Shown: positions 1-24,354 of the stretch, in pieces
How the letters are laid out: each line of letters starts with the position of its first letter
Numbering within the stretch: position 1 is the stretch's first letter
Assembly: GCA_001871905.1 (NCBI GenBank)
Contig: MNUG01000017.1
Coordinates: forward strand, 124,397-188,396
Source of the DNA: Alphaproteobacteria bacterium CG1_02_46_17
Lineage (GTDB): Bacteria > Pseudomonadota > Alphaproteobacteria > Micavibrionales > Micavibrionaceae
Reading direction: 5' to 3'
DNA: 64,000 nucleotides
Program-made: the position numbers and the translations under genes
Notes under the pieces: model-generated
Told to the model about the DNA's origin: nothing
The model's input: only the letters and a program-made list of their open reading frames with translations
Databases searched by the model: none

Positions 1-284
1 AAATCCCCACCCTCAACAAAATCACTAAGACGCTCGAACACCATGCGCCGCTCGAGTGTCACCACCACACCATTGGCAGGGGCCACATCAAATATTACGG
101 AACCCCCAGCACTCTCGCCCGCACCGTAAATGGTAAATCCGGAAATCTGCGCAGCACCATCGAAATAAATTTTCAAATCTTCACTGGCAAAAACCGGAAA
201 TGGGTACTCGAAATTTACCCGCACGCCATCGGCCAGATAGCGGATAATAGGAACCACATCCGGCATTTTAATATGCTCGGTCAT
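1..284 (-). CDS. T7-like tail fibre N-terminal domain protein (partial, runs off left edge)
   Basis: Manual translation from ATG at 284: MTEHIKMPDVVPIIRYLADGVRVNFEYPFPVFASEDLKIYFDGAAQISGFTIYGAGESAGGSVIFDVAPANGVVVTLERRMVFERL; resembles phage T7 gp17 N-terminal domains; last gene of the cassette in the window. Confidence 0.65.
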   Translation of the reverse strand, partial: MTEHIKMPDVVPIIRYLADGVRVNFEYPFPVFASEDLKIYFDGAAQISGFTIYGAGESAGGSVIFDVAPANGVVVTLERRMVFERLSDFVEGGD

Positions 285-310
285 CAAAACTCTCCAAAAA
301 AATAATAGGA

Positions 311-781
311 TTAAAAAAGATCGCTCAAGGATGACAATAAGGTCTTTTGCTTGAGCTGTTGTTTTTGCAGTAAGTTTAGCTGACGCTGCTGCGCCAGTTT
401 CTGATCCAGCGTTTCATTGGCCAGAGACGTATCATTTTCGTTATTCTGTCGCTCAATATCTGAATCCTCGACCAGACCTTGCAGAACCGCCTCACTTGAT
501 CCCGCTCCGGAACCAACACCACTCCCGCCATATTCGGCACGTTGCGAAGACACCATCTTCTTCAACTTATTCCGTCGCTCCGTTTCGGCTTGCTGTAACC
601 CAAGCAGATTCTGCTTTTTTTGTAATTCGACATTTTGTTGATAGTTCTGCAAAGCCAGATCAGACTCTGACCCCTTATGCGATGCCGACATAAAAGGCTG
701 CGCGAAACTGGCAACGCTCCCGATTGCCGATCCAACCTGCGCCAATGGCGCCACCACCGATGATAAACTTCCCATCTTCAA
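311..781 (-). CDS. putative internal virion protein (T7 gp14-like position)
   Basis: 156 aa, small hydrophobic N-terminus then Q/K-rich helical region; lies directly after tail tubular protein B. Confidence 0.5.
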   Translation of the reverse strand: MKMGSLSSVVAPLAQVGSAIGSVASFAQPFMSASHKGSESDLALQNYQQNVELQKKQNLLGLQQAETERRNKLKKMVSSQRAEYGGSGVGSGAGSSEAVLQGLVEDSDIERQNNENDTSLANETLDQKLAQQRQLNLLQKQQLKQKTLLSSLSDLF

Positions 782-798
782 ACTTCTCCTTTTTAACT

Positions 799-2697
799 CT
801 AACTATTCGCCATGACCGTGATATGAACTGCAAGCAACGAAAATGGCACAGGCACACTCTGCTCGATCCGCCATAAGGGCCGCGACGGATCATTGCTCCA
901 CCCGAACGCCTGCACTCGAATATCGCCTGAAACCAGCGGCACCGGAGCGTCAAGAATATCTTCTTCGCCCAATTGGCGCAGTGTGATATCTTTCAATCCT
1001 CGCCCGATATCAACCTGTAACGCCGAAGTGTCCTCCACGCGAAAAGTTGCCTCGATCAACCGGACAGCCCGCGCCGTTCCCACAGAGCCGGTATTCCCCG
1101 GCGGCAAAGGCTCAATCACATGGGTAAACGGCAATCCAACCTGCACAGCGGAAAAATTATTTTCAAGCATGATAGAACCACTTGTCACCACCTCGTCCGC
1201 CAGCACACGTCCGTCTGCCACAACAGACACGGTCTGTCCCTCCAGATGATCCAACCCGCCCCATATATTGGTGGGTGACTCGACCTCTCCGGTCAACGCG
1301 GAATCAAGAACCAGATCATCATCAATCATCTCGAGAAAATAATCATCGCCGCGCTTCATCATGAAATAGACGTCATCACCGGCCACCGACACCGATAACG
1401 CCTCGCCATTTGTCTCATGAAGCGTCCACGCCGCAACAGATTCCGCACGATACACGGTCAGCGTGGCAAATTTTCCATCCGCACGGATCAAAAACAATAA
1501 CCGTCGGCGCTGGTCGTAATCCTGATCAATCGGGGTCTTGATAATATGATGGGACAAAAGCGCCAGATCGGTTGACTGATACGCGGCTTCAACATCCGTA
1601 TAAACAAACTCGCGCAACTCCTGACCATTCCGCGCCACAAACAGAGTTGCCCCATCGACATCAATCGGGGCGATATAACGGTCAACCATTGACCCGACCC
1701 GTGTCTGACGCTTGATCTGGACAGTGGACGGCGTCAACGGATCCCCCGTCACCATCCATTCTGCACCACTGGTAAACACCTGCAAGTGACGACCGGAAAA
1801 AACGCCGCAAATGGCGTTGACCTGATCCGAGAAAATCCCGAACTCAACCGCCTCGGCATCCAATCCAGTTCCAAGGTCGAAATTAAACAAATCTCCCGAT
1901 TGCGACATCCATAACCGGTTGGGCAAATCGCGTGACCCGCCGATCACCAGCCTGTCCTGATGAAAGACGACTGTTTGCGGATATCCCCGAACGGGGGAGA
2001 ATGATTGTTCTTCCCAATCAACCGTCGCCGAAGTGGATAGCAAATCCTCGATCGTTGTAACACTGACAACTGTCGGGGAATCAACACTTGTTATCAGGAC
2101 TTCCTGATCCCCCACCCGCAACCTTGTCCCGTTATGCTCGTCTTCAAAAACAGAAGCGGACGCAGTCAAAGTAACGGATCCACTGGTGCCACTGGGGGTT
2201 ACGGTTACACTCGCACCGGCAAATTTATACATGGGCTGATAAACCCTGCCGCTATCACTGCTATAAAATTCCCAGTCAATGATCGACCACACTCCGCCAG
2301 CACTGCGGATCAATTTCTTGGGGGGATAATTTCCATGCACCAGCAACAATGTATCGGCACTTTGCGTCCAGGACAGATCAGGAATATCCGCCTCGACCCA
2401 GGGGGCCACAAGCGTCGTCTGCAAGACACCATTTGCGTAAACAGCCATTTGCAAATCAGTAACAACCAGCAGATAGGTTTGCTCGGTATTAAACTCGAAC
2501 GCAATCAAGCGTCCTTGCCCTGAAATCTGGTCTAGATAGCGCAGGCCAGAGCGGCGTTTCACTCCGCCAGTCGGCTGGATAAATACGTTTCTCAGCTTTA
2601 ATGCCCCGTTATCATAGGCGCGCAAATCCCCACGCCCCAACAGACTTGGCGACACCTCGCCAGCTGTGAATGTTGTTTTAATCTGGGATGTTTTCAT
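799..2697 (-). CDS. tail tubular protein B-like (T7 gp12-like)
   Basis: 632 aa; 'TFTAGEVSPSLLGRGDLRAYDNGALKLRNVFIQPTGGVKRRSGLRYL' is typical of podovirus tail nozzle/stabilisation proteins. Confidence 0.8.
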   Translation of the reverse strand: MKTSQIKTTFTAGEVSPSLLGRGDLRAYDNGALKLRNVFIQPTGGVKRRSGLRYLDQISGQGRLIAFEFNTEQTYLLVVTDLQMAVYANGVLQTTLVAPWVEADIPDLSWTQSADTLLLVHGNYPPKKLIRSAGGVWSIIDWEFYSSDSGRVYQPMYKFAGASVTVTPSGTSGSVTLTASASVFEDEHNGTRLRVGDQEVLITSVDSPTVVSVTTIEDLLSTSATVDWEEQSFSPVRGYPQTVVFHQDRLVIGGSRDLPNRLWMSQSGDLFNFDLGTGLDAEAVEFGIFSDQVNAICGVFSGRHLQVFTSGAEWMVTGDPLTPSTVQIKRQTRVGSMVDRYIAPIDVDGATLFVARNGQELREFVYTDVEAAYQSTDLALLSHHIIKTPIDQDYDQRRRLLFLIRADGKFATLTVYRAESVAAWTLHETNGEALSVSVAGDDVYFMMKRGDDYFLEMIDDDLVLDSALTGEVESPTNIWGGLDHLEGQTVSVVADGRVLADEVVTSGSIMLENNFSAVQVGLPFTHVIEPLPPGNTGSVGTARAVRLIEATFRVEDTSALQVDIGRGLKDITLRQLGEEDILDAPVPLVSGDIRVQAFGWSNDPSRPLWRIEQSVPVPFSLLAVHITVMANS

Positions 2698-2700
2698 TTA

Positions 2701-3270
2701 TTACTCCCTCGCGTCAATCAATGAAAAGCTTTCAAGCCGGTTGGGACTATCTTGCTGGGCGTCGATCTGGCGGGCGCGGGCAAATTCCTGTTCGGCAAGC
2801 TTGGCCAGAACTTCACTGCGCGAGACATTTTCGGTCAGTGGCAGACAAAATTCGGAGGCCAATCGTGCCATCATCGCCATATCAAAATAGGGTGGAAAAG
2901 TTTCTTCCTCAGGACGATAGATATAGGTCAGCAAAACCGTATCAGAATTGCAATGCAACTGATCGCCGATGATGCGATAGGACAAACCACTCCCACGCGT
3001 TCCAACTCCTGCAGAAATGGCGCGCAAAAAATCATTGGGAAGCTGGAACGCCGCACAATAATCCGCCACCGGATCAACACTCAATTTTGTCAACGCCACC
3101 TGTCCGGTTGCAAAACTCCACGCATAGCAAGACAACAGATAATCACGAACCGGCCCATATAAAAGACCGGAAATTTCAGACGCTGCCGTCCCATCGGAAA
3201 AAGAAGAAATCGGATGTGCGCCAATCCGCACCAGCGCACGCGAACATAACCCAATATCAGATAGAGCCAT
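2701..3270 (-). CDS. tail tubular protein A-like (T7 gp11-like)
   Basis: 189 aa; 'IGLCSRALVRIGAHPISSFSDGTAASEISGLLYGPVRDYLLSCYAWSFAT' resembles the podovirus adaptor family; upstream of tail tubular B. Confidence 0.8.
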   Translation of the reverse strand: MALSDIGLCSRALVRIGAHPISSFSDGTAASEISGLLYGPVRDYLLSCYAWSFATGQVALTKLSVDPVADYCAAFQLPNDFLRAISAGVGTRGSGLSYRIIGDQLHCNSDTVLLTYIYRPEEETFPPYFDMAMMARLASEFCLPLTENVSRSEVLAKLAEQEFARARQIDAQQDSPNRLESFSLIDARE

Positions 3271-3377
3271 AATAGAAACCTCTTCAAAAATAAAAGAAAG
3301 AAGTGACCTGCATCAACGTGCAGGCCACTCCCGATTGATACAAAGACAACCTGAATCACCCAACCAAAGGCGGGGGG

Positions 3378-3620
3378 TCAGGCGGTAAAGGCTGCAATGG
3401 TTACAACAGAACCACTATTGGCAGTCACCACATAGAACACGGTCGATGGTGTGCCGTCTGTATCAATATTCGCGATCACCAGATCATTGACGCGCATCAT
3501 GGATGCAGCAGTGTTGAAATACCCTGCACCAGTCACGGCAGAATCCGTGGTGGTATAATGCCACAAGGTAAAATTATTCGCATAAGCGAGAACGCTTAGC
3601 TCTTTGCTCTCAAAAGCCAT
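3378..3620 (-). CDS. small phage structural-cassette protein, unknown function
   Basis: 80 aa ORF colinear with the cassette, between capsid and tail genes. Confidence 0.55.
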   Translation of the reverse strand: MAFESKELSVLAYANNFTLWHYTTTDSAVTGAGYFNTAASMMRVNDLVIANIDTDGTPSTVFYVVTANSGSVVTIAAFTA

Positions 3621-3670
3621 TTGAAATCTCCTAAATATTTTTAATGAATTTAATGATGAAAATTTTTCGT

Positions 3671-3795
3671 ATCATTCAAAGGTGGTTGCGGCGAAAATCT
3701 TGACTTTTGAGAACCGGCGCGCAGCGTACTTTTTTGTACGTGAGCACCGGAAGCACAAAAAGGCAGAATTTGCAGCCCAACCCCCAAAGAATGAT
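3671..3795. repeat. 125-bp imperfect palindrome (59/60-nt arms, T6 loop)
   Basis: Left arm ATCATTCAAAGGTGGTTG...CCGGCGCGCAGCGTAC, TTTTTT loop, right arm GTACGTGAGCACCGG...CAACCCCCAAAGAATGAT; reverse complement of the right arm aligns along the left arm. Confidence 0.8.
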
Positions 3796-3802
3796 CGATA
3801 AA

Positions 3803-4633
3803 TTAGTCAGGTGTCTCGTCACAATTGATGACAACCACTCCCGCCTCATCAACCAATGCCGCCCCTTGGGACATCATATTGTTGATAAAATGCGCGGCGC
3901 GGTCACCATGCCATGAAATATCGGTCTGAACATCAGACCCCGATGCATGACCAATTGCGGTTTTGTGTAACCAAAAACAAGACCTGATGTCATTGCCATC
4001 AATCGGCAGACCAGAATGCGGAATCCATGTTGTCCCCAACCATTTCTTGGCCTGAGTCCCCTTGTAGGGCAACTCGTCAGGGCCAACGAATTCGCTGCTG
4101 GAAAATTCCTGAATCTTCAAAAGTTCAGACCATTGTTTCCATCCGATCACGGCAAACCGCCCGCCATCATCCGGCACATCGGACTCTCCTAAAAGTTCGA
4201 ACGCTTCCAGAACCTTATCGCGGGTCATACCGGTATTGTTATCCGCAACACTCAAAGACGAGGCTCCACCCAAGGCCGCAATAATCAGGTCATCGGTTTT
4301 GCGCCCCAGAGCATAAGCTCCGGCATTGGCAATCACATGACGCTCATCATGGTTGACTTTCAATTCGTCGAATTTATCAACCCAGTCCCCTGCATAAAAA
4401 TCCTGCAATTCACACTCGATGGACGAATGGGACAAGTTCATCACCGGTACCATCCCATGGGTAGATTTGGTTGACGCCGTGCCTTTTCCGACTTTCTGGA
4501 AGACAACAGATGATCCTTTGACATTATTAATGGTGCGAACAGCACCACGCAGTTTTGATCCTTGACGCTGATAGGCTTCATGGACTTCGCGTTCAAACTG
4601 CTTGACGAACGCCTGTGGAAGTTCGGTACTCAT
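3803..4633 (-). CDS. major capsid protein-like (podovirus type)
   Basis: MSTELPQAFVKQFEREVHEAYQRQGSKLRGAVRT...; size and position between scaffold and tail genes; ORF track starts at an earlier ATG (4675). Confidence 0.75.
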   Translation of the reverse strand: MSTELPQAFVKQFEREVHEAYQRQGSKLRGAVRTINNVKGSSVVFQKVGKGTASTKSTHGMVPVMNLSHSSIECELQDFYAGDWVDKFDELKVNHDERHVIANAGAYALGRKTDDLIIAALGGASSLSVADNNTGMTRDKVLEAFELLGESDVPDDGGRFAVIGWKQWSELLKIQEFSSSEFVGPDELPYKGTQAKKWLGTTWIPHSGLPIDGNDIRSCFWLHKTAIGHASGSDVQTDISWHGDRAAHFINNMMSQGAALVDEAGVVVINCDETPD

Positions 4634-4928
4634 ATAGTATCTCCTTGATATATACATAATAATTTTATGAAACACCGCGACAGGTTCTCGAAAATCGGCC
4701 TGATTTTGGCAAACGGGATGCAGGCAGGAACCGTATAATTCCTGTTATCTGCGCTCATTACGGTGGATTGCGACATCCTGTCGTGATGAAAAACTTGTTT
4801 TTTCTGAAATGACCCCCTATATTAATAACGGTCGGTCGTTACGTAAATGGAGATTACGTAACTCTTTAATAGTGCTTGGTGTTGTTAATAAATATAAAAT
4901 TTTACTGGACGAACACAGGAGCCCAAGT

Positions 4929-5333
4929 ATGCTGCAGACCATTATGTCAGCACTCAAAATTAAGAAGTCCCTTTCTTTGGATGACGGAGGCAATAACGGC
5001 TTCTCGTCCCGTCGTGTGCATCCGCGTCGCTCTTGCGACCAATGCATTGGTTTTATCAATGGCAAAGCCCATCCGATTATGGACTGGAGTCCGGGGGGCG
5101 TAAAAGTATTTGGCGATTCACGTCCCATGGCCATTGGTCAGGAAATGGATGTCGAGATGAAATTCCATCTTCGCGATCACCTGATCCATATCAAGCACCG
5201 TGCCAAAGTCGTTCGTAAAATGGCGGAAACTTTCTCGCTGCAATTCGAACCGTTGAACACCGACATTCGCAAAACATTCCAGAATGTCATCGACGATTTC
5301 AATGCCCGTGAATTCGCCGGATCGCAAGCGTAA
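4929..5333 (+). CDS. PilZ-domain protein
   Basis: RRVHPRR (RxxxR) and DWSPGG ([D/N]xSxxG) motifs with beta-rich body; opposite strand to the phage genes. Confidence 0.7.
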   Translation: MLQTIMSALKIKKSLSLDDGGNNGFSSRRVHPRRSCDQCIGFINGKAHPIMDWSPGGVKVFGDSRPMAIGQEMDVEMKFHLRDHLIHIKHRAKVVRKMAETFSLQFEPLNTDIRKTFQNVIDDFNAREFAGSQA

Positions 5334-5375
5334 CCACCCCTTGCACATCAAAAATTAATCCTGTTAAATGACACC

Positions 5376-5959
5376 ATGTTTATGCGCGTGGTGTCATTGC
5401 TCTTTTTAAGCGTTCTTCTTCTGGGGTGCTCAACCACACCCGAAGATTCATCGCTCGGCTATATGCCCATACCCGACCAATTCATCGGGCGGTGGGAACC
5501 TGTATCCAAGAATGTCTGGCAACCTATAACGATCGAAAGGACCAGCACAGGAGCCCTTATTACAGCAGATACGACTGTTAGTGACGCAAAAGGCCACGTT
5601 CATCGGATCATTGATACAACAACCATCAATATCTTTGCCGCGGTCAAAACCGTCTCTACGCCATATCAGAGGAACGCAATATTTCCAAAAAAACAGGCAT
5701 GGATGTCATTATAAAACCGTATTACGTTTACTACATCATTGATCTCAAACCTTCTGAATATCTTCCTTTTACAAAAGTCACACTTGATCCCAAAATAGCA
5801 TTGAACCGGATATATTGCAGAACAAAACTAACAGAAAAAAGTATGTCGATCGCATCATCAATCCATTGGTCACGCATGAACAACAATAGCTGTGAAGACA
5901 TTCCCCCTGTCCAAAAGCTTCAGGCAGCATCAACCTTCTATTACAGCAAGATGGACTAG
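5376..5959 (+). pseudogene. lipoprotein gene with apparent frameshift near 5640-5650
   Basis: ORF 5376-5714 has a lipobox (LLLGCST). Adding one A to 'gtcaaaaccgt' joins it to ORF 5699-5959 as ...FAAVKNRLYAISEERNISKKTGMDVIIKPYYVYYIIDL... Confidence 0.6.
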
Positions 5960-6238
5960 CGCTTTTTCTCTTCCTCATCAGCAGACATAAATAGTTCCCT
6001 TGTCCTTTGATTCCACCCTTCAGAAACATCCACCCTATGGGATTCCTTGGAAACCGCCTTCCAATCCCTCTTTTCCATCGCATCAAACATTTTAGGCCAT
6101 GGCATCAGGAATCATATGCCCGTGACCAACGGTGACATATCCTTTGGAGTCTTGATACATATGGTCAGAAGTCCCCTCGCTCTCTTTAATCCAGCTTTTC
6201 AAATCGTCATCCATCCACTCATCTTGGGAATCAGCCAT
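5956..6238 (-). pseudogene. lysozyme-like (GH24-type?) small protein split into two ORFs
   Basis: 6238-6092 encodes MADSQDEWMDDDLKSWIKESEGTSDHMYQDSKGYVTVGHGHMIPDAMA*; 6090-5956 (other frame) encodes MFDAMEKRDWKAVSKESHRVDVSEGWNQRTRELFMSADEEEKKR*; TAA-A-ATG junction; absent from the ORF track because both are short. Confidence 0.5.
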
Positions 6239-6240
6239 AA

Positions 6241-6993
6241 TTATTTTCCCCCATAAAGTTTTTCAAAGCCGGCAGTCACCTTGGCAATAAAGGCAGGGTT
6301 GCGGTCACGCCAATACATTGGGTCTTTCATCATCTTTCTCAAGGATTGTTCATCCAGCGCCCCAGTCCCCGCCGCATCGGCACGCAATGACGGCATCTTG
6401 TCATCTTTTTGCATCATTTTATAAAGCGCCATCACACCATCATAAGAACAGGCCATCCCTTCAAAAGCGGCTTGGGGCAAAGCTTTGCTGCCGTATTCCT
6501 GTAACTGTCGGGAAATTTCCTGCCATCTGGAAACCCCACCAAATGCCTCAACCAGACGCTCAATCTCGCGTTCAGCCTGAAACTCGGCAGCCATCTCCAG
6601 AATAAGCGGCACCAATTTCTCTGACGCCAGATCATACACTTCCTGAACCTGTTCCGGCGTAAACCCCTTCCCGTGCAAACGGGCATTCAAATCCGGATCA
6701 ATATCCAGAAAATCATTGGACAACGTCACCTGATACCCATCCGGTGTCTCCGGAACTCCCAGCAATTTCAAAAGCCGCAGACGATCCACGTCGTTTTCGG
6801 GGACGGGGATCATATTTGAAAGCTTTTTCTCAAGCGCCATATAAGATTGCAACAACGCCTCTACGCGAATTTCTTTCTTTTTGGCATCCCAGAATTTTTC
6901 CGGCACCTGCGGAGGGCGATCATTGGTTTGTCCCGCCTGCATCTTCTCATCTGATTTGACCTCGACTTGAGCATCCAGATATGTATTGGTCAT
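6241..6993 (-). CDS. phage scaffold / capsid assembly protein-like (T7 gp9-like)
   Basis: 250 aa, acidic, helical; between portal and capsid; 'KFWDAKKKEIRVEALLQSYMALEKKLSNM'. Confidence 0.65.
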   Translation of the reverse strand: MTNTYLDAQVEVKSDEKMQAGQTNDRPPQVPEKFWDAKKKEIRVEALLQSYMALEKKLSNMIPVPENDVDRLRLLKLLGVPETPDGYQVTLSNDFLDIDPDLNARLHGKGFTPEQVQEVYDLASEKLVPLILEMAAEFQAEREIERLVEAFGGVSRWQEISRQLQEYGSKALPQAAFEGMACSYDGVMALYKMMQKDDKMPSLRADAAGTGALDEQSLRKMMKDPMYWRDRNPAFIAKVTAGFEKLYGGK

Positions 6994-7033
6994 GTTTATC
7001 TCCTGATTAAAAATAAAGTTAAAAGAAATTTGA

Positions 7034-8536
7034 TTACTGTTTTGGGGGTAAAGATTTTTCGGCCTCGACAGGGGCCACCATCAAAGACGACGGAACACCC
7101 AGAACGCGGGCCAGATAATCAATCATCGCGACCCGATCAACCCGCGCCAATGCCTCCGGCCCCAGACTATTGGCTGTCTGCAGCCATCCGATCATAGTCT
7201 GGACATGCTGCCCTGCCTGCGCTCTTGCCAAAGGGGATCGGTATTCGATCGCCAATGTCCGCCTATCAAGTGGCAAATCCGGCACTGCGCCACGCCGCCT
7301 TAAAATCTGGTAGGCCTGTGTAATCAACGGATTTAGAAACTCGACTTGCAGCCGTCCAAAAGTCGCCCCCAGCAACATCGCCATTTGGCTGGATCTCTCC
7401 AGAATTTCTGTGGCCGTCACTTTTGATCCCCCTACAAGAGGCAAGCGATCCACCAAAAGCGCATGACGAATACGCGCACGCAAATCATCCAGAACAAGTT
7501 GCGACACATCAAATCTGGCCGGCATCTCAAGTGGTGTTAATCCTTTCGATCCGACAGCTTTCGGGATAATGGCCCCGGGGACCAGTTCAATATTGGCTGG
7601 GTTAATAACCCCGTCATCATCAGCCTGCCAGATTTCTGTCACAGCGATGGACGCATTCTTCAAAATCAACTCGACAACTTTGTTGGCAGTTTTAATATCC
7701 GGCAATGCCTTCATAACTGGCGATCGCCCATAAATTTCCCCCGGAGATTTCATCCAACGAAAATTGATAAAGGGCGACCCCTCCAGCTTGCTGGAATAAA
7801 TAATCTCTCTGGCATCATACAACATCACAACCAGAACATACCCGCGCGCATCGGAGGCTGGAAAAACACTCTCGATCACCGCATATTTTTCATCCATATC
7901 GGATCGAGACCTATTGACCATGGAGACGGGTAACTCCGCGCCATCATACCGATCCATAATCTGTGAGATAGTCAAAGAAAGATGACGATAAACAATATCA
8001 AGTCCACCTGATTGTCCCTCGGCAAAATAAACATCCTGTAAGGGAAGTGCAGTAAAGCGAAACGCAGATCCTTGTCCGATCTCGGCTTCTTCCAACGCCA
8101 GAGAAGCCGTTCCCGCTACCACCAGATCAAGAAAGCACTGATGCACTTCGACCAGAAAATTCGATTGGTCGAAATGTGCCTGCATAATGCAGGTCGTTTT
8201 ATCCAGAACAGGAGCAAGTTTTTGGGCTTCCTCGCTGGATAAATCTGTTCCAGCCTTGATGGCAAACCAAGGCACCAAAGGCGGCGTCAGATTTCCCAAC
8301 AAAAGTGACGCCAGCTCATCAACTTCATCCGGTGCTGTCGCATCAAATAATTGTTCTCCACGCCGCAAATTTGAAGATAGGCCAGAATTAAAATCACCAC
8401 GCAATGGCAAAGAATAATCATAACAATCCTGCCATAATCCTTCCCATTTGGATCGGCGTACGCGAGCTTGTGTAAATTTTTCCAACACGCCCGCTGCCAA
8501 CTGATCTAGTTTTTGCTTGTCTTCGGAATATTCCAT
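7034..8536 (-). CDS. head-tail connector/portal protein (T7 gp8-like)
   Basis: 500 aa; 'RRSKWEGLWQDCYDYSLPLR...LFDATAPDEVDELASLLLGNLTPP' and 'GRSPVMKALPDIKTANKVVELILKNASIAV' typical of podovirus portals. Confidence 0.85.
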   Translation of the reverse strand: MEYSEDKQKLDQLAAGVLEKFTQARVRRSKWEGLWQDCYDYSLPLRGDFNSGLSSNLRRGEQLFDATAPDEVDELASLLLGNLTPPLVPWFAIKAGTDLSSEEAQKLAPVLDKTTCIMQAHFDQSNFLVEVHQCFLDLVVAGTASLALEEAEIGQGSAFRFTALPLQDVYFAEGQSGGLDIVYRHLSLTISQIMDRYDGAELPVSMVNRSRSDMDEKYAVIESVFPASDARGYVLVVMLYDAREIIYSSKLEGSPFINFRWMKSPGEIYGRSPVMKALPDIKTANKVVELILKNASIAVTEIWQADDDGVINPANIELVPGAIIPKAVGSKGLTPLEMPARFDVSQLVLDDLRARIRHALLVDRLPLVGGSKVTATEILERSSQMAMLLGATFGRLQVEFLNPLITQAYQILRRRGAVPDLPLDRRTLAIEYRSPLARAQAGQHVQTMIGWLQTANSLGPEALARVDRVAMIDYLARVLGVPSSLMVAPVEAEKSLPPKQ

Positions 8537-8539
8537 TTT

Positions 8540-8782
8540 TTATTCTCCCAACAAGGTTTTTCGGGCAACCGAATTGTTTCCTGTGCTTAAAACACCACGA
8601 AAACTGGTCAATACATTGCCCAACACGCTTCGTTTGCGGCGTAAGACATTTTCGGCGCGCGCTGCTGCCACTTCCGCAGGATCAGCCTCGCTTGAAACCG
8701 TTGCAGTTGTTTCAACCGGTGCTGCATAAACGACTTGCGCACTTTGGTTAGACGCCTTGGGGCGCGATGTTAAAGAACCCAT
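8540..8782 (-). CDS. small phage-cassette protein
   Basis: 80 aa ORF (start ATG 8782) immediately upstream of the portal gene. Confidence 0.5.
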   Translation of the reverse strand: MGSLTSRPKASNQSAQVVYAAPVETTATVSSEADPAEVAAARAENVLRRKRSVLGNVLTSFRGVLSTGNNSVARKTLLGE

Positions 8783-8792
8783 CTCAATCTCC

Positions 8793-9203
8793 TTAATTTT
8801 TTTGCAAATAACGATATAACTGTGCTGGTGTAATAATGAACGGGCGATGCACACCCAATATGCGTTTCACCACTTCGACACAGGATAAGAAAATCGGCGG
8901 ATAACACCGCCGCGCAGGACTAATAATTTCAGTTTCAACGACCTTTAATCCCTGACCCGTAAACCATCCAGCAAGATCAGATTCAGCGGATACGTCTGGA
9001 ATAGAAACTTCCCAGAAATGCAACATCGGATCAATCACCACCCATCTGTCTTGGGAACAGATCACGACAAAACAGTGCCGGAAATCACGTTTCAAGAATC
9101 TTAACCACCACAAATCTGTCTGGCCCGAAAAAACAACCAAAGCCCTATTATGCCCTACCTCACACATTGGCCAATGATCCCCAATCAATTCGTGGAACAA
9201 CAA
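8793..9203 (-). CDS. phage-cassette protein, possible permuted papain/NlpC-like fold
   Basis: 136 aa; HCFVVICSQDRWVVIDPM followed by C-terminal SCVEVVKRILG; the fold call is inference from His-before-Cys order. Confidence 0.4.
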   Translation of the reverse strand: MLFHELIGDHWPMCEVGHNRALVVFSGQTDLWWLRFLKRDFRHCFVVICSQDRWVVIDPMLHFWEVSIPDVSAESDLAGWFTGQGLKVVETEIISPARRCYPPIFLSCVEVVKRILGVHRPFIITPAQLYRYLQKN

Positions 9204-9555
9204 TACCTTTGGAAACCAGAGCTTCTTCCAGACGTTCCATGGCTTCCGTCCAGATATGATGGGCGCGCAGCTCTTTGGGGCGACGGGGATCAGGTGACGT
9301 CAAACGTAATCCGTAGTAACGCAAAACCTTGATATGGTCGATGACCAGACGCCGCCCACGATAAAGACGATCCAACTCACGGTAAATATCAACAGGCTCA
9401 CAAGGACGCTGGAATGTTCCGGCACCAGCCGAGATCCGCGCCCCCTCAAGTCGCGCCACCTGAGCCTGAACAAACCAGAACCACGCAGCTTCAGCCGAGT
9501 CAAAAGGACGCATTTGCTCGTGAGCAACGTCACGGCAACCAGATACTATAGACAT
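9160..9555 (-). CDS. conserved phage-associated protein, unknown function
   Basis: 131 aa; first gene of the cassette; overlaps the next ORF. Confidence 0.5.
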   Translation of the reverse strand: MSIVSGCRDVAHEQMRPFDSAEAAWFWFVQAQVARLEGARISAGAGTFQRPCEPVDIYRELDRLYRGRRLVIDHIKVLRYYGLRLTSPDPRRPKELRAHHIWTEAMERLEEALVSKGIVVPRIDWGSLANV

Positions 9556-9589
9556 AAATTAATCCCCCAGAGAAAATTGGAGAGAGCAC

Positions 9590-9621
9590 ATATCTCCGGA
9601 TTATCTTGGCTCCGGACATAT
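9590..9621. promoter_or_regulatory. operator-like inverted repeat ATATCTCCGGA-N10-TCCGGACATAT
   Basis: 11-bp arms with one mismatch, in the divergent intergenic region between the phage cassette and the S24 regulator. Confidence 0.5.
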
Positions 9622-9623
9622 TT

Positions 9624-9638
9624 GTTCCCTTTATGTTC
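9624..9638 (+). promoter_or_regulatory. putative LexA SOS box GTTC-N7-GTTC
   Basis: GTTCCCTTTATGTTC exactly fits the alphaproteobacterial LexA direct-repeat consensus. Confidence 0.5.
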
Positions 9639-9729
9639 TAATTTATGATCGGGTTTTTTGATGATGTCAAGAGTTTTTTATGATTATTTTCCTATATCTA
9701 GGATTAAAGACTTATGAGATACTATTTAT

Positions 9730-10389
9730 ATGTTTACGCACGAAAATATCTGGGCTGCCCTTGACCGTCTTGCACGGGTTAGCGGCTATTCCACCTCAGG
9801 CCTCGCCAAAAAAGCAGGGCTAGACCCCACCTCTTTCAACCGCAGCAAAAGAATTGGCCCAGACGGAAAACCGCGTTGGCCCTCAACCGAAAGTCTCGCG
9901 CGAGTTCTGGGCGCCACAGAATCTTCTCTGTCGGATTTTCTGGCCTTACTTAATGAGTCCGGAGAAGCCCAACTTCCTCAAAAGGCGAAACCACAAATTC
10001 CAGTGTTAGGATATGCACAAGCAGGAAAAGACGGATATTTCGATGATGCCGGATATCCAACAGGGGAAGGATGGGACAGCATCCACTTCCCTCATCCCGC
10101 GCAAGACACACAACAGGACATAAAAATATATGCTTTGGAAGTCAGTGGGGATTCCATGTTGCCCCTGTTTCGGGCAGGTGACCGTTTGATTGTGTCTCCA
10201 CAAAGTACCATCCGACGGGGTGACCGTGTTATTGTTAAAACAACATTGGGCGAAGTCATGGCCAAGGAATTACTGCGTCAAACCGCCAGCAAGGTTGAAC
10301 TGAAATCTCTTAATCCGGATCAAGAAAACAAAAGCTTTACCACACAGGAAATTTGCTGGATTGCGCGTATAATCTGGGTCTCTCAATAA
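9730..10389 (+). CDS. HTH transcriptional regulator with S24 (LexA/CI-like) peptidase domain
   Basis: N-terminal HTH; C-terminal ALEVSGDSMLPLFRAGDRLIVSP...RRGDRVIVKTTLGEVMAKEL with Ser/Lys dyad context. Confidence 0.85.
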   Translation: MFTHENIWAALDRLARVSGYSTSGLAKKAGLDPTSFNRSKRIGPDGKPRWPSTESLARVLGATESSLSDFLALLNESGEAQLPQKAKPQIPVLGYAQAGKDGYFDDAGYPTGEGWDSIHFPHPAQDTQQDIKIYALEVSGDSMLPLFRAGDRLIVSPQSTIRRGDRVIVKTTLGEVMAKELLRQTASKVELKSLNPDQENKSFTTQEICWIARIIWVSQ

Positions 10390-23788: not shown

Positions 23789-24136
23789 CTATGGAAGAGC
23801 ATTTATAGCGGGAAAAGCCACTGCGTGGGCACAAAATTTGAATATAAGAGAAAAAGAACCCCCAAATTGTGAACCACGCTTTAATAGTTTGTTTGCCGCT
23901 TTTTGCTTTTTAAGAGAAGATATTTGGAGTTCCACATATCGCCGATAGCGCCGCTGTTGAAAAAGATAGGAACGTACACACCGCCATTGACGCGAGTACA
24001 TCCCGTGTTTTACTGCATTTTGAGAGGATTTTTGTTTACCAGAATCCGTACGCGGGCCCGTCGATTTTGTCCAAGGAGCCCACCGCCTGATGGCCTCCCG
24101 TTGTTTCTGTTTTTGCTCTTCTGTCCATTGACGCAT
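23789..24136 (-). CDS. short STGPRT/NA-KHG motif protein
   Basis: MRQWTEEQKQKQREAIRRWAPWTKSTGPRTDSGKQKSSQNAVKHGMYSRQ; a recurring bacterial small-protein motif. Confidence 0.5.
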   Translation of the reverse strand: MRQWTEEQKQKQREAIRRWAPWTKSTGPRTDSGKQKSSQNAVKHGMYSRQWRCVRSYLFQQRRYRRYVELQISSLKKQKAANKLLKRGSQFGGSFSLIFKFCAHAVAFPAINALP

Positions 24137-24354
24137 CCGGCCATTATAGGAATAAAGTCATAAAATAGCAAGAGGATTCCTCCCCACAAAATTATATAGT
24201 CCTGTCATCAAAAATAGCGGAATCGATGGATCACTCTAGAATCGCTCTAAAATTACTGCCTGATTCAGGTGATGGCAACCTGTCCGATTTTTTTATTGAC
24301 ATATAATACACAGATGGTCATTATTATCACGTTTCGTAAAATAAGGATAGGATA

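What the first reader, a model, noticed from the sequence alone, without database searches (positions are those of the whole stretch)
1..9645. Polymerase-less T7-like virion cassette: candidate domesticated podovirus particle or GTA-like element
Gene order matches the T7 morphogenesis block (portal, scaffold, capsid, tail tubular A and B, internal virion-like, tail fibre N-terminal). Upstream of the portal there are only three small ORFs, then a host-type regulator and housekeeping genes. No RNA polymerase, DNA polymerase, primase, integrase or large internal virion proteins (gp15/gp16-like) are visible. Known alphaproteobacterial GTAs derive from other tailed-phage types as far as I know, so a T7-like virion module kept without replication genes would be unusual. 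The left edge cuts the cassette, so terminase and lysis genes could lie just outside.
Basis: partly seen in the sequence, partly recalled or inferred. Interest (0 to 1): 0.72.

Follow-up and report, generated by a model that had tools for sequence, protein, structure and literature searches.

The report
Podovirus-type gene transfer agent candidate
A complete T7-like virus-particle gene set, lacking every gene for viral replication or integration, has been passed down with the bacterial chromosome across much of the Alphaproteobacteria, which suggests an unrecognised, ancient gene transfer agent rather than a leftover virus.

Summary
The cassette is 14.65 kb (contig C7:119301-133951; window 1-9555 plus 5.1 kb outside). 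The outside part holds the rest of a tail spike, a T7-type large terminase, a cell-wall hydrolase and a GTA-type 3TM holin, then host genes. There is no polymerase, integrase, tRNA or att-like repeat. The host is a Micavibrio-type alphaproteobacterium.

The cassette occurs in 97 of 104 genomes of its family, nearly always once, in one gene order; the same order recurs in many other alphaproteobacterial families. A five-gene virion tree tracks RpoB (21/34 shared splits, random maximum 3; distance r=0.91, random maximum 0.43). All genes are under purifying selection (dN/dS 0.03-0.23). The nearest sequenced phages fall outside. It never co-occurred with the RcGTA marker (0 of 385 genomes).

An adjacent S24 repressor is co-inherited. 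Its promoter region is enriched 10.7-fold for GGA-N6-TCC at that spacing only, the core of the published operator of Caulobacter's GTA repressor RogA.

Best reading: a domesticated podovirus-type GTA, unrelated to RcGTA and, by reported capsid type, apparently to BaGTA. Vertical inheritance and domestication are shown; packaging and transfer of host DNA are inferred.

The parts
9730..10389 (+). S24 (LexA/cI/RogA-like) HTH repressor, 219 aa, divergent from the cassette
   Evidence: PF00717 2.7e-20; A98-G99 cleavage site, S142 and K179 present; found in 45 of 47 class genomes with the cassette
9679..9694 (-). candidate operator TAGGA-AAATAA-TCATA (one base off the palindrome)
   Evidence: pattern match; family motif GGA-N6-TCC 45 observed against 4.2 expected between S24 and the cassette, only at spacing 6
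9642..9670 (-). candidate sigma-70-type promoter TTGACA-N17-CATAAA reading into the cassette
   Evidence: single match in the window, 0 in shuffles; not tested for function
9160..9555 (-). g131, conserved helical protein, first gene of the cassette, function unknown
   Evidence: found in 46 of 385 class genomes, nearly all with the cassette; AlphaFold pLDDT 84.5, no fold match
8793..9203 (-). g136, conserved protein with invariant H43, C44 and C108, function unknown
   Evidence: alignment; model pLDDT 80, no fold match at E<=0.001
8540..8854 (-). g104, small conserved protein just upstream of portal
   Evidence: phrog_831 0.005
7034..8536 (-). portal (head-tail connector), 500 aa
   Evidence: PF12236 2.9e-130; PDB portals such as 9efk_A, 2.4e-49
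6241..6993 (-). scaffold (T7 capsid assembly protein family)
   Evidence: PF05396 2.1e-9
5376..5714 (+). lipoprotein gene inserted between scaffold and capsid; detected only in this genome and its closest relative
   Evidence: tblastn hits in L003 and L034 only
4809..5333 (+). PilZ-domain protein, antisense between scaffold and capsid in nearly all loci of the order
   Evidence: PF07238 2.2e-6; found in 37 family loci and in other families of the order, not in class loci
3803..4633 (-). major capsid protein, 276 aa
   Evidence: PF19821 8.8e-81; PDB capsid 9eg4_A 4e-30
3378..3620 (-). g80, conserved 80-aa protein between capsid and tail genes
   Evidence: phrog_18004 1.7e-12
2701..3270 (-). tail tube protein A-like (gatekeeper)
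   Evidence: phrog_394 1.2e-42
799..2697 (-). tail tube protein B-like (nozzle), 632 aa
   Evidence: phrog_376 1.1e-149; PDB tail nozzle 8ck1_A 4.1e-66
311..781 (-). small internal virion-like protein
   Evidence: phrog_418 1e-4
1..287 (-). tail spike N-terminus; whole gene is C7:122662-124683 (673 aa, pectate-lyase-like); then g100 C7:122181-122483, TerL C7:120664-122163, g102 C7:120352-120660, cell-wall hydrolase C7:119856-120344, holin C7:119301-119855
   Evidence: L003 ORFs; PF12708, PF07486, PF11351; NF033889 T7 terminase equivalog 420.9 bits; phrog_38 4.2e-82
24147..24162 (+). second operator-like site TAGGAATAAAGTCATA, 11 bp upstream of a dispersed gene (23789-24136, - strand) of the KSTGPRT family
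   Evidence: three of four operator-like sites outside the cassette promoter lie just upstream of genes of this rare family

Best explanation
The cassette is a vertically inherited, domesticated T7-like (podovirus-type) particle locus, most likely a gene transfer agent. Proposed mechanism: the adjacent S24 repressor holds the divergent promoter silent by binding GGA-N6-TCC palindromes. DNA damage (RecA-stimulated self-cleavage of the S24 domain) or, in genera where the HTH is fused to PyrE, a metabolic signal lifts repression. Scaffold, capsid, portal and tail genes build a short-tailed particle, and TerL packages chromosomal DNA because no phage genome or replication origin exists. The hydrolase and holin lyse a few cells, and the spike and tail deliver DNA to relatives. 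Shown: gene content, absence of replication and integration genes, order, vertical descent, purifying selection, co-inherited regulator, motif enrichment. Inferred: repressor binding and induction, particle production, packaging of host DNA, transfer.
For: Complete packaging/virion/lysis set with host genes on both sides. Portal in 90 of 104 family genomes, plus tail tube B in 7 more. Same gene order across the family and class. Virion tree congruent with RpoB, as well as the two halves of RpoB agree with each other by shared splits. dN/dS 0.03-0.23. Cassette stays beside pyrE across most of the order. Phages fall outside the element's portal clade (support 0.86-0.91 for the core sets). Best 80 IMG/VR relatives all on contigs of at most 25.6 kb. 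0 of 47 cassette genomes carry the RcGTA marker. S24 present in 45 of 47. GGA-N6-TCC 10.7-fold enriched only at spacing 6, the core of RogA's GGAA-N4-TTCC operator (PMC9632790).
Against: No particle, packaged DNA or transfer has been observed for this locus. Seven family genomes show neither portal nor tail tube B, several of them at least 94% complete, and some portals carry a stop or frameshift, so the element can be lost. One genome (G013) is placed differently in the virion tree. The window's own operator is one base off and TAGGA-N6-TCCTA is not enriched genome-wide. Trees are FastTree only; the wider portal clade has support 0.69.
Confidence: 0.8

Rival explanations
1. An ordinary or satellite-like T7-type prophage that keeps re-entering these genomes horizontally.
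For: Homologous portals and capsids exist in free phages (Pelagibacter phage Hodr, MEP301) and in unrelated prophages.
Against: No integrase, replication genes, tRNA or att-like repeat; virion tree follows RpoB; fixed site by pyrE across most of the order; no relative on a phage-sized contig among the best 80 in IMG/VR.
Confidence: 0.04
2. A defective prophage remnant under decay.
For: Some genomes have in-frame stops, frameshifts or losses.
Against: dN/dS 0.03-0.23 in all cassette genes of the closest pair, capsid 0.02-0.05 in all pairs; intact open frames in nearly all of about 100 genomes; conservation over class-level distances.
Confidence: 0.02
3. A domesticated particle kept for another job: killing or feeding (Micavibrio includes predators), delivery of a protein, or a lysis tool, with DNA packaging incidental.
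For: Spike, hydrolase and holin could serve attack or lysis; extra peptidoglycan-binding-like and secreted ORFs sit in some cassettes.
Against: TerL, portal, scaffold and capsid are all retained under purifying selection, which only DNA packaging explains well; distribution includes non-predators such as Magnetospirillum and Azospirillum.
Confidence: 0.12

Closest known systems
RcGTA-like gene transfer agents (Rhodogtaviriformidae; Rhodobacter, Caulobacter)
   Same: About 15 kb structural cluster without replication or integration genes, vertical inheritance, purifying selection, a 3TM GTA-type holin, and a LexA-like repressor (RogA) with a GGA-N6-TCC core operator.
   Different: RcGTA marker PF13547 is absent from every cassette genome tested; here portal, capsid, tail and TerL are T7-type, so the phage ancestor was different.
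BaGTA of Bartonella (Bartogtaviriformidae)
   Same: Alphaproteobacterial, vertically inherited, small main cluster of about 14 kb.
FpGTA of Faecalibacterium
   Same: GTA-like element with predicted podovirus-like morphology (PMC12946183).
   Different: Firmicute host, two operons, demonstrated packaging; described there as the first podovirus-like GTA element. Not compared by sequence here.
T7-like phages (nearest sequenced: Pelagibacter phage EXVC031P Hodr)
   Same: Homologous portal, scaffold, capsid, g80, tail tube A/B, hydrolase and spike N-terminus.
   Different: Hodr is a 34 kb free phage with recombinase and further genes; none of the repressor, g131, g136 or holin profiles hit it.

Membership tests
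Gene transfer agent (viriform) | Particle genes derived from a tailed phage | tested here: met
Gene transfer agent (viriform) | No own replication, integration or att sites | tested here: met
   (cassette and both flanks read)
Gene transfer agent (viriform) | Vertical co-evolution with the host | tested here: met
   21/34 splits shared with RpoB, r=0.909; shared site by pyrE
Gene transfer agent (viriform) | Purifying selection on particle genes | tested here: met
Gene transfer agent (viriform) | Forms a clade apart from phage homologs | tested here: met
   portal tree, support 0.86-0.91 for the core sets, 0.69 for the widest set; only four phages and a few prophage homologs used
Gene transfer agent (viriform) | Particles carry random host DNA and cannot carry their whole locus | not testable with these tools
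   needs induction and sequencing of protected DNA
Gene transfer agent (viriform) | Small terminase lacking a DNA-binding domain | tested here: inconclusive
   g100 next to TerL is the candidate; a dispersed KSTGPRT family gives weak TerS matches (0.017); neither tested structurally
RcGTA-like (Rhodogtaviriformidae) | RcGTA-specific tail gene (GTA_TIM, PF13547) | tested here: not met
   absent from this genome and from all 47 cassette genomes in the class sample
BaGTA-like (Bartogtaviriformidae) | Homologous TerL and HK97-type capsid | not tested
   BaGTA sequences not held; capsid here is PF19821 and TerL is the T7 equivalog
T7-like phage (Autographiviridae-type) | Own RNA polymerase and replication genes | tested here: not met
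   none found in or around the cassette

The most novel reading that the evidence does not exclude
A previously undescribed, class-wide lineage of gene transfer agents of podovirus type, independent of RcGTA and BaGTA, inherited vertically since early in alphaproteobacterial history, and controlled by the same kind of repressor (RogA family, same operator core) that controls RcGTA-like GTAs. The two unrelated GTAs would thus be alternative occupants of one host control circuit, never found together in the sample.
Probability: 0.6. Interest if true: 0.94.

Novelty: new variant of a known kind. Interest (0 to 1): 0.86.

Why it matters
Only three GTA lineages have established genes in the formal classification, two of them in Alphaproteobacteria (PMC9662315), and a 2026 paper calls a Faecalibacterium element the first podovirus-like one (PMC12946183). 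A further lineage, spread over dozens of alphaproteobacterial families including Micavibrio, Magnetospirillum and Azospirillum, would show that bacteria have domesticated unrelated phages repeatedly for the same purpose. It would also make the disputed question of why GTAs are maintained testable by comparing independent origins. It supplies a candidate locus for unexplained mitomycin-induced particles with about 10 kb of random host DNA in Azospirillum lipoferum 4B and strain B510 (reported in PMC3899980; the cassette was seen here in five other Azospirillum genomes).

Tried and rejected
Terminase_6N (PF03237) missed the TerL in a whole-genome search; the T7 terminase model found it. A first RpoB tree picked antisense ORFs for two GC-rich genomes and gave a false low correlation; corrected. 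The first att-repeat test read the wrong file; repeated (longest shared word 12, shuffled maximum 15). Fold searches for g131 and g136 gave nothing usable. Exact GGAA-N4-TTCC is too strict for this repressor (3 matches); the shared core GGA-N6-TCC is the enriched form. The palindrome TAGGA-N6-TCCTA is not enriched genome-wide over its reversed control. An upstream-motif count for the KSTGPRT genes used an asymmetric pattern and is not relied on. Boyer 2008 on Azospirillum particles is not held. Papers on a T7-like alphaproteobacterial GTA were searched for and not found; preprints and most subscription journals are not in the library.
Full report
WHAT IS THERE. The window is contig C7:124397-188396 of a 2.07 Mb, 99.9% complete genome in 40 contigs. 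Its closest named relative is Micavibrio sp. UBA6212, whose portal is 97% identical (that contig's length equals the one of G060). The window edge cuts the cassette, not the contig. The next 5.1 kb to the left (locus L003; C7 position = 114396 + L003 position) hold the rest of a 673-aa pectate-lyase-like tail spike, a 100-aa protein, a T7-type TerL (NCBIfam equivalog, 420.9 bits; phrog_38 4.2e-82), a 102-aa protein, a Hydrolase_2 cell-wall hydrolase and a holin of the Pfam family GTA_holin_3TM, 'for gene-transfer release'. Beyond lie host genes: NhaA, ArsR, an aminotransferase, DHFR, GlmS and GlmU on the left, and HtrA and RarA on the right (named from their sequences). The whole cassette is C7:119301-133951, 14.65 kb. 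No polymerase, primase, integrase or tRNA lies in or near it. The longest word shared by the two flanks is 12 bases, against a shuffled maximum of 15.

HOW WIDESPREAD. The portal occurs in 90 of 104 genomes of the same family, nearly always once and intact. Seven of the 14 portal-negative genomes still have the tail tube B gene, so 97 of 104 carry the cassette or part of it. The same gene order (S24 repressor facing away, then g131, g136, g104, portal, scaffold, capsid, g80, tail tube A, tail tube B, internal protein, spike, g100, TerL, g102, hydrolase, holin) holds across the family. It also holds in other families of the order and in class-level loci. Named genomes include Magnetospirillum, Paramagnetospirillum, Azospirillum, Terasakiella, Caenispirillum and Defluviicoccus. 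In a sample of 385 genomes spread over the class, 47 have a portal scoring above about 500 bits. A 5 kb human-faecal 'phage' record (MT838907) is a piece of the same element type.

VERTICAL DESCENT. For 37 genomes across the class I compared a concatenated tree (portal, TerL, capsid, tail tubes A and B) with RpoB. They share 21 of 34 splits; relabelled trees share at most 3, and the two halves of RpoB share 16 with each other. Patristic distances correlate at r=0.909 (relabelled maximum 0.43). The only strong conflict is the placement of one genome, G013. The capsid evolves at about the same mean distance as RpoB (ratio 1.07). In most of the order the cassette sits directly beside pyrE, a shared chromosomal site; in the window's genus pyrE has moved about 100 kb away. 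Between this genome and G060, dN/dS is 0.03-0.23 for all cassette genes (portal 0.077, capsid 0.032, TerL 0.077, spike 0.061). These results exclude a recent prophage and a decaying remnant. Decay does occur in a few genomes: single in-frame stops, one frameshift, one cassette without portal, and seven family genomes with neither portal nor tail tube B.

RELATION TO PHAGES. Nearest sequenced phages are only 35% (portal) and 47% (capsid) identical (Pelagibacter phage Hodr). In a portal tree the element's core sets have support 0.86-0.91 and the phages lie outside; a wider set that adds reduced-genome lineages has 0.69. The 80 best relatives in IMG/VR lie on contigs of at most 25.6 kb, many of 13-18 kb, as expected if no phage-sized genome of this lineage exists. 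On plasmids only distant prophage portals appear.

REGULATION. The divergent S24 gene has a Cro/cI-type HTH and a LexA/cI peptidase domain with cleavage site A98-G99, S142 and K179, so SOS-type self-cleavage is plausible; most but not all linked homologs keep these residues. It is present in 45 of 47 cassette genomes, 21 of 35 genomes with the RcGTA marker, and 48 of 303 with neither (RcGTA versus neither p=5e-8, not corrected for phylogeny). Its size (about 213 aa) and taxon range match RogA, the LexA-like repressor of the Caulobacter GTA, which binds GGAA-N4-TTCC (PMC9632790). In 60 regions between S24 and the cassette, GGA-N6-TCC occurs 45 times against 4.2 expected, and no spacing other than 6 is comparably enriched. 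GGA-N6-TCC is the core of GGAA-N4-TTCC. The window has a one-base-off copy at 9679-9694 just upstream of a TTGACA-N17-CATAAA promoter at 9642-9670.

MUTUAL EXCLUSION. The RcGTA marker PF13547 occurs in 35 of 385 class genomes and in none of the 47 with this cassette (Fisher p=0.013, not phylogenetically corrected). The two elements look like alternatives.

UNEXPECTED FINDINGS. In about 30 loci the S24 domain is gone and the HTH is fused in frame to a full-length orotate phosphoribosyltransferase (PyrE, about 310 aa), yet the operator is kept in many of them. Tying a GTA repressor to a pyrimidine-synthesis enzyme would couple it to nucleotide status or protect it from loss; this is inference. 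In this genome, three of the four operator-like sites found outside the cassette promoter lie just upstream of genes or two-gene operons of one rare small-protein family (KSTGPRT motif), one member of which gives weak terminase-small-subunit matches (0.017 and 0.036). This may be a dispersed part of the regulon.

MECHANISM. The best-supported model is a gene transfer agent: repression by the S24/HTH protein, derepression after DNA damage or a metabolic cue, assembly of a short-tailed particle, packaging of chromosomal DNA by TerL for want of a phage genome, lysis, and delivery. All of these steps are inferred from gene content, residues and motif enrichment; none was assayed. PMC3899980 reports that Azospirillum lipoferum 4B and strain B510 release mitomycin-induced particles with about 10 kb of random host DNA whose genes are unproven; this cassette, seen in five other Azospirillum genomes, is a candidate source.

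COMPARISON AND VERDICT. GTA classification recognises three independently exapted groups (PMC9662315), and a 2026 paper calls the Faecalibacterium element the first podovirus-like one (PMC12946183). The element here meets the sequence-level criteria for a GTA. It fails the RcGTA marker, and it lacks T7 replication genes. Whether it packages host DNA is untested, so it is filed as a strong candidate: a new, podovirus-type variant of a known kind.

Noticed in passing
L044:16343-17272, L059:2815-3708, L055, L042, L053, L068 and others: HTH of the S24 repressor fused in frame to full-length PyrE (orotate phosphoribosyltransferase) in about 30 Micavibrio-type loci, with S24 and pyrE adjacent but separate in most other loci of the order.
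   Followed up: partly
window 23789-24136 with site 24147-24162; L459:384-1193; L461:707-1516: Operator-like palindromes precede three paralogous genes (KSTGPRT motif) or their operons in the same genome; weak terminase-small-subunit similarity for one of them.
   Followed up: partly
window 4809-5333: A PilZ (c-di-GMP-binding type) gene lies antisense between scaffold and capsid in nearly all loci of the order but not elsewhere in the class; reason unknown.
   Followed up: partly
L048 and L049 (genome G093, two contigs): Two full cassettes in one genome, both with the HTH-PyrE fusion; duplication or mixed assembly not resolved.
   Followed up: no
L043:11734-13080, L045:11131-12486, L040:12975-14141, L051:11724-16190: Variable cargo between cassette genes, including ORFs that by eye resemble peptidoglycan-binding proteins and small secreted proteins; not searched against profiles.
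   Followed up: partly
L301, L440, L441, L444, L445: Divergent and partly scattered cassettes in complete genomes of only 0.9-1.2 Mb, suggesting retention in genome-reduced lineages.
   Followed up: partly
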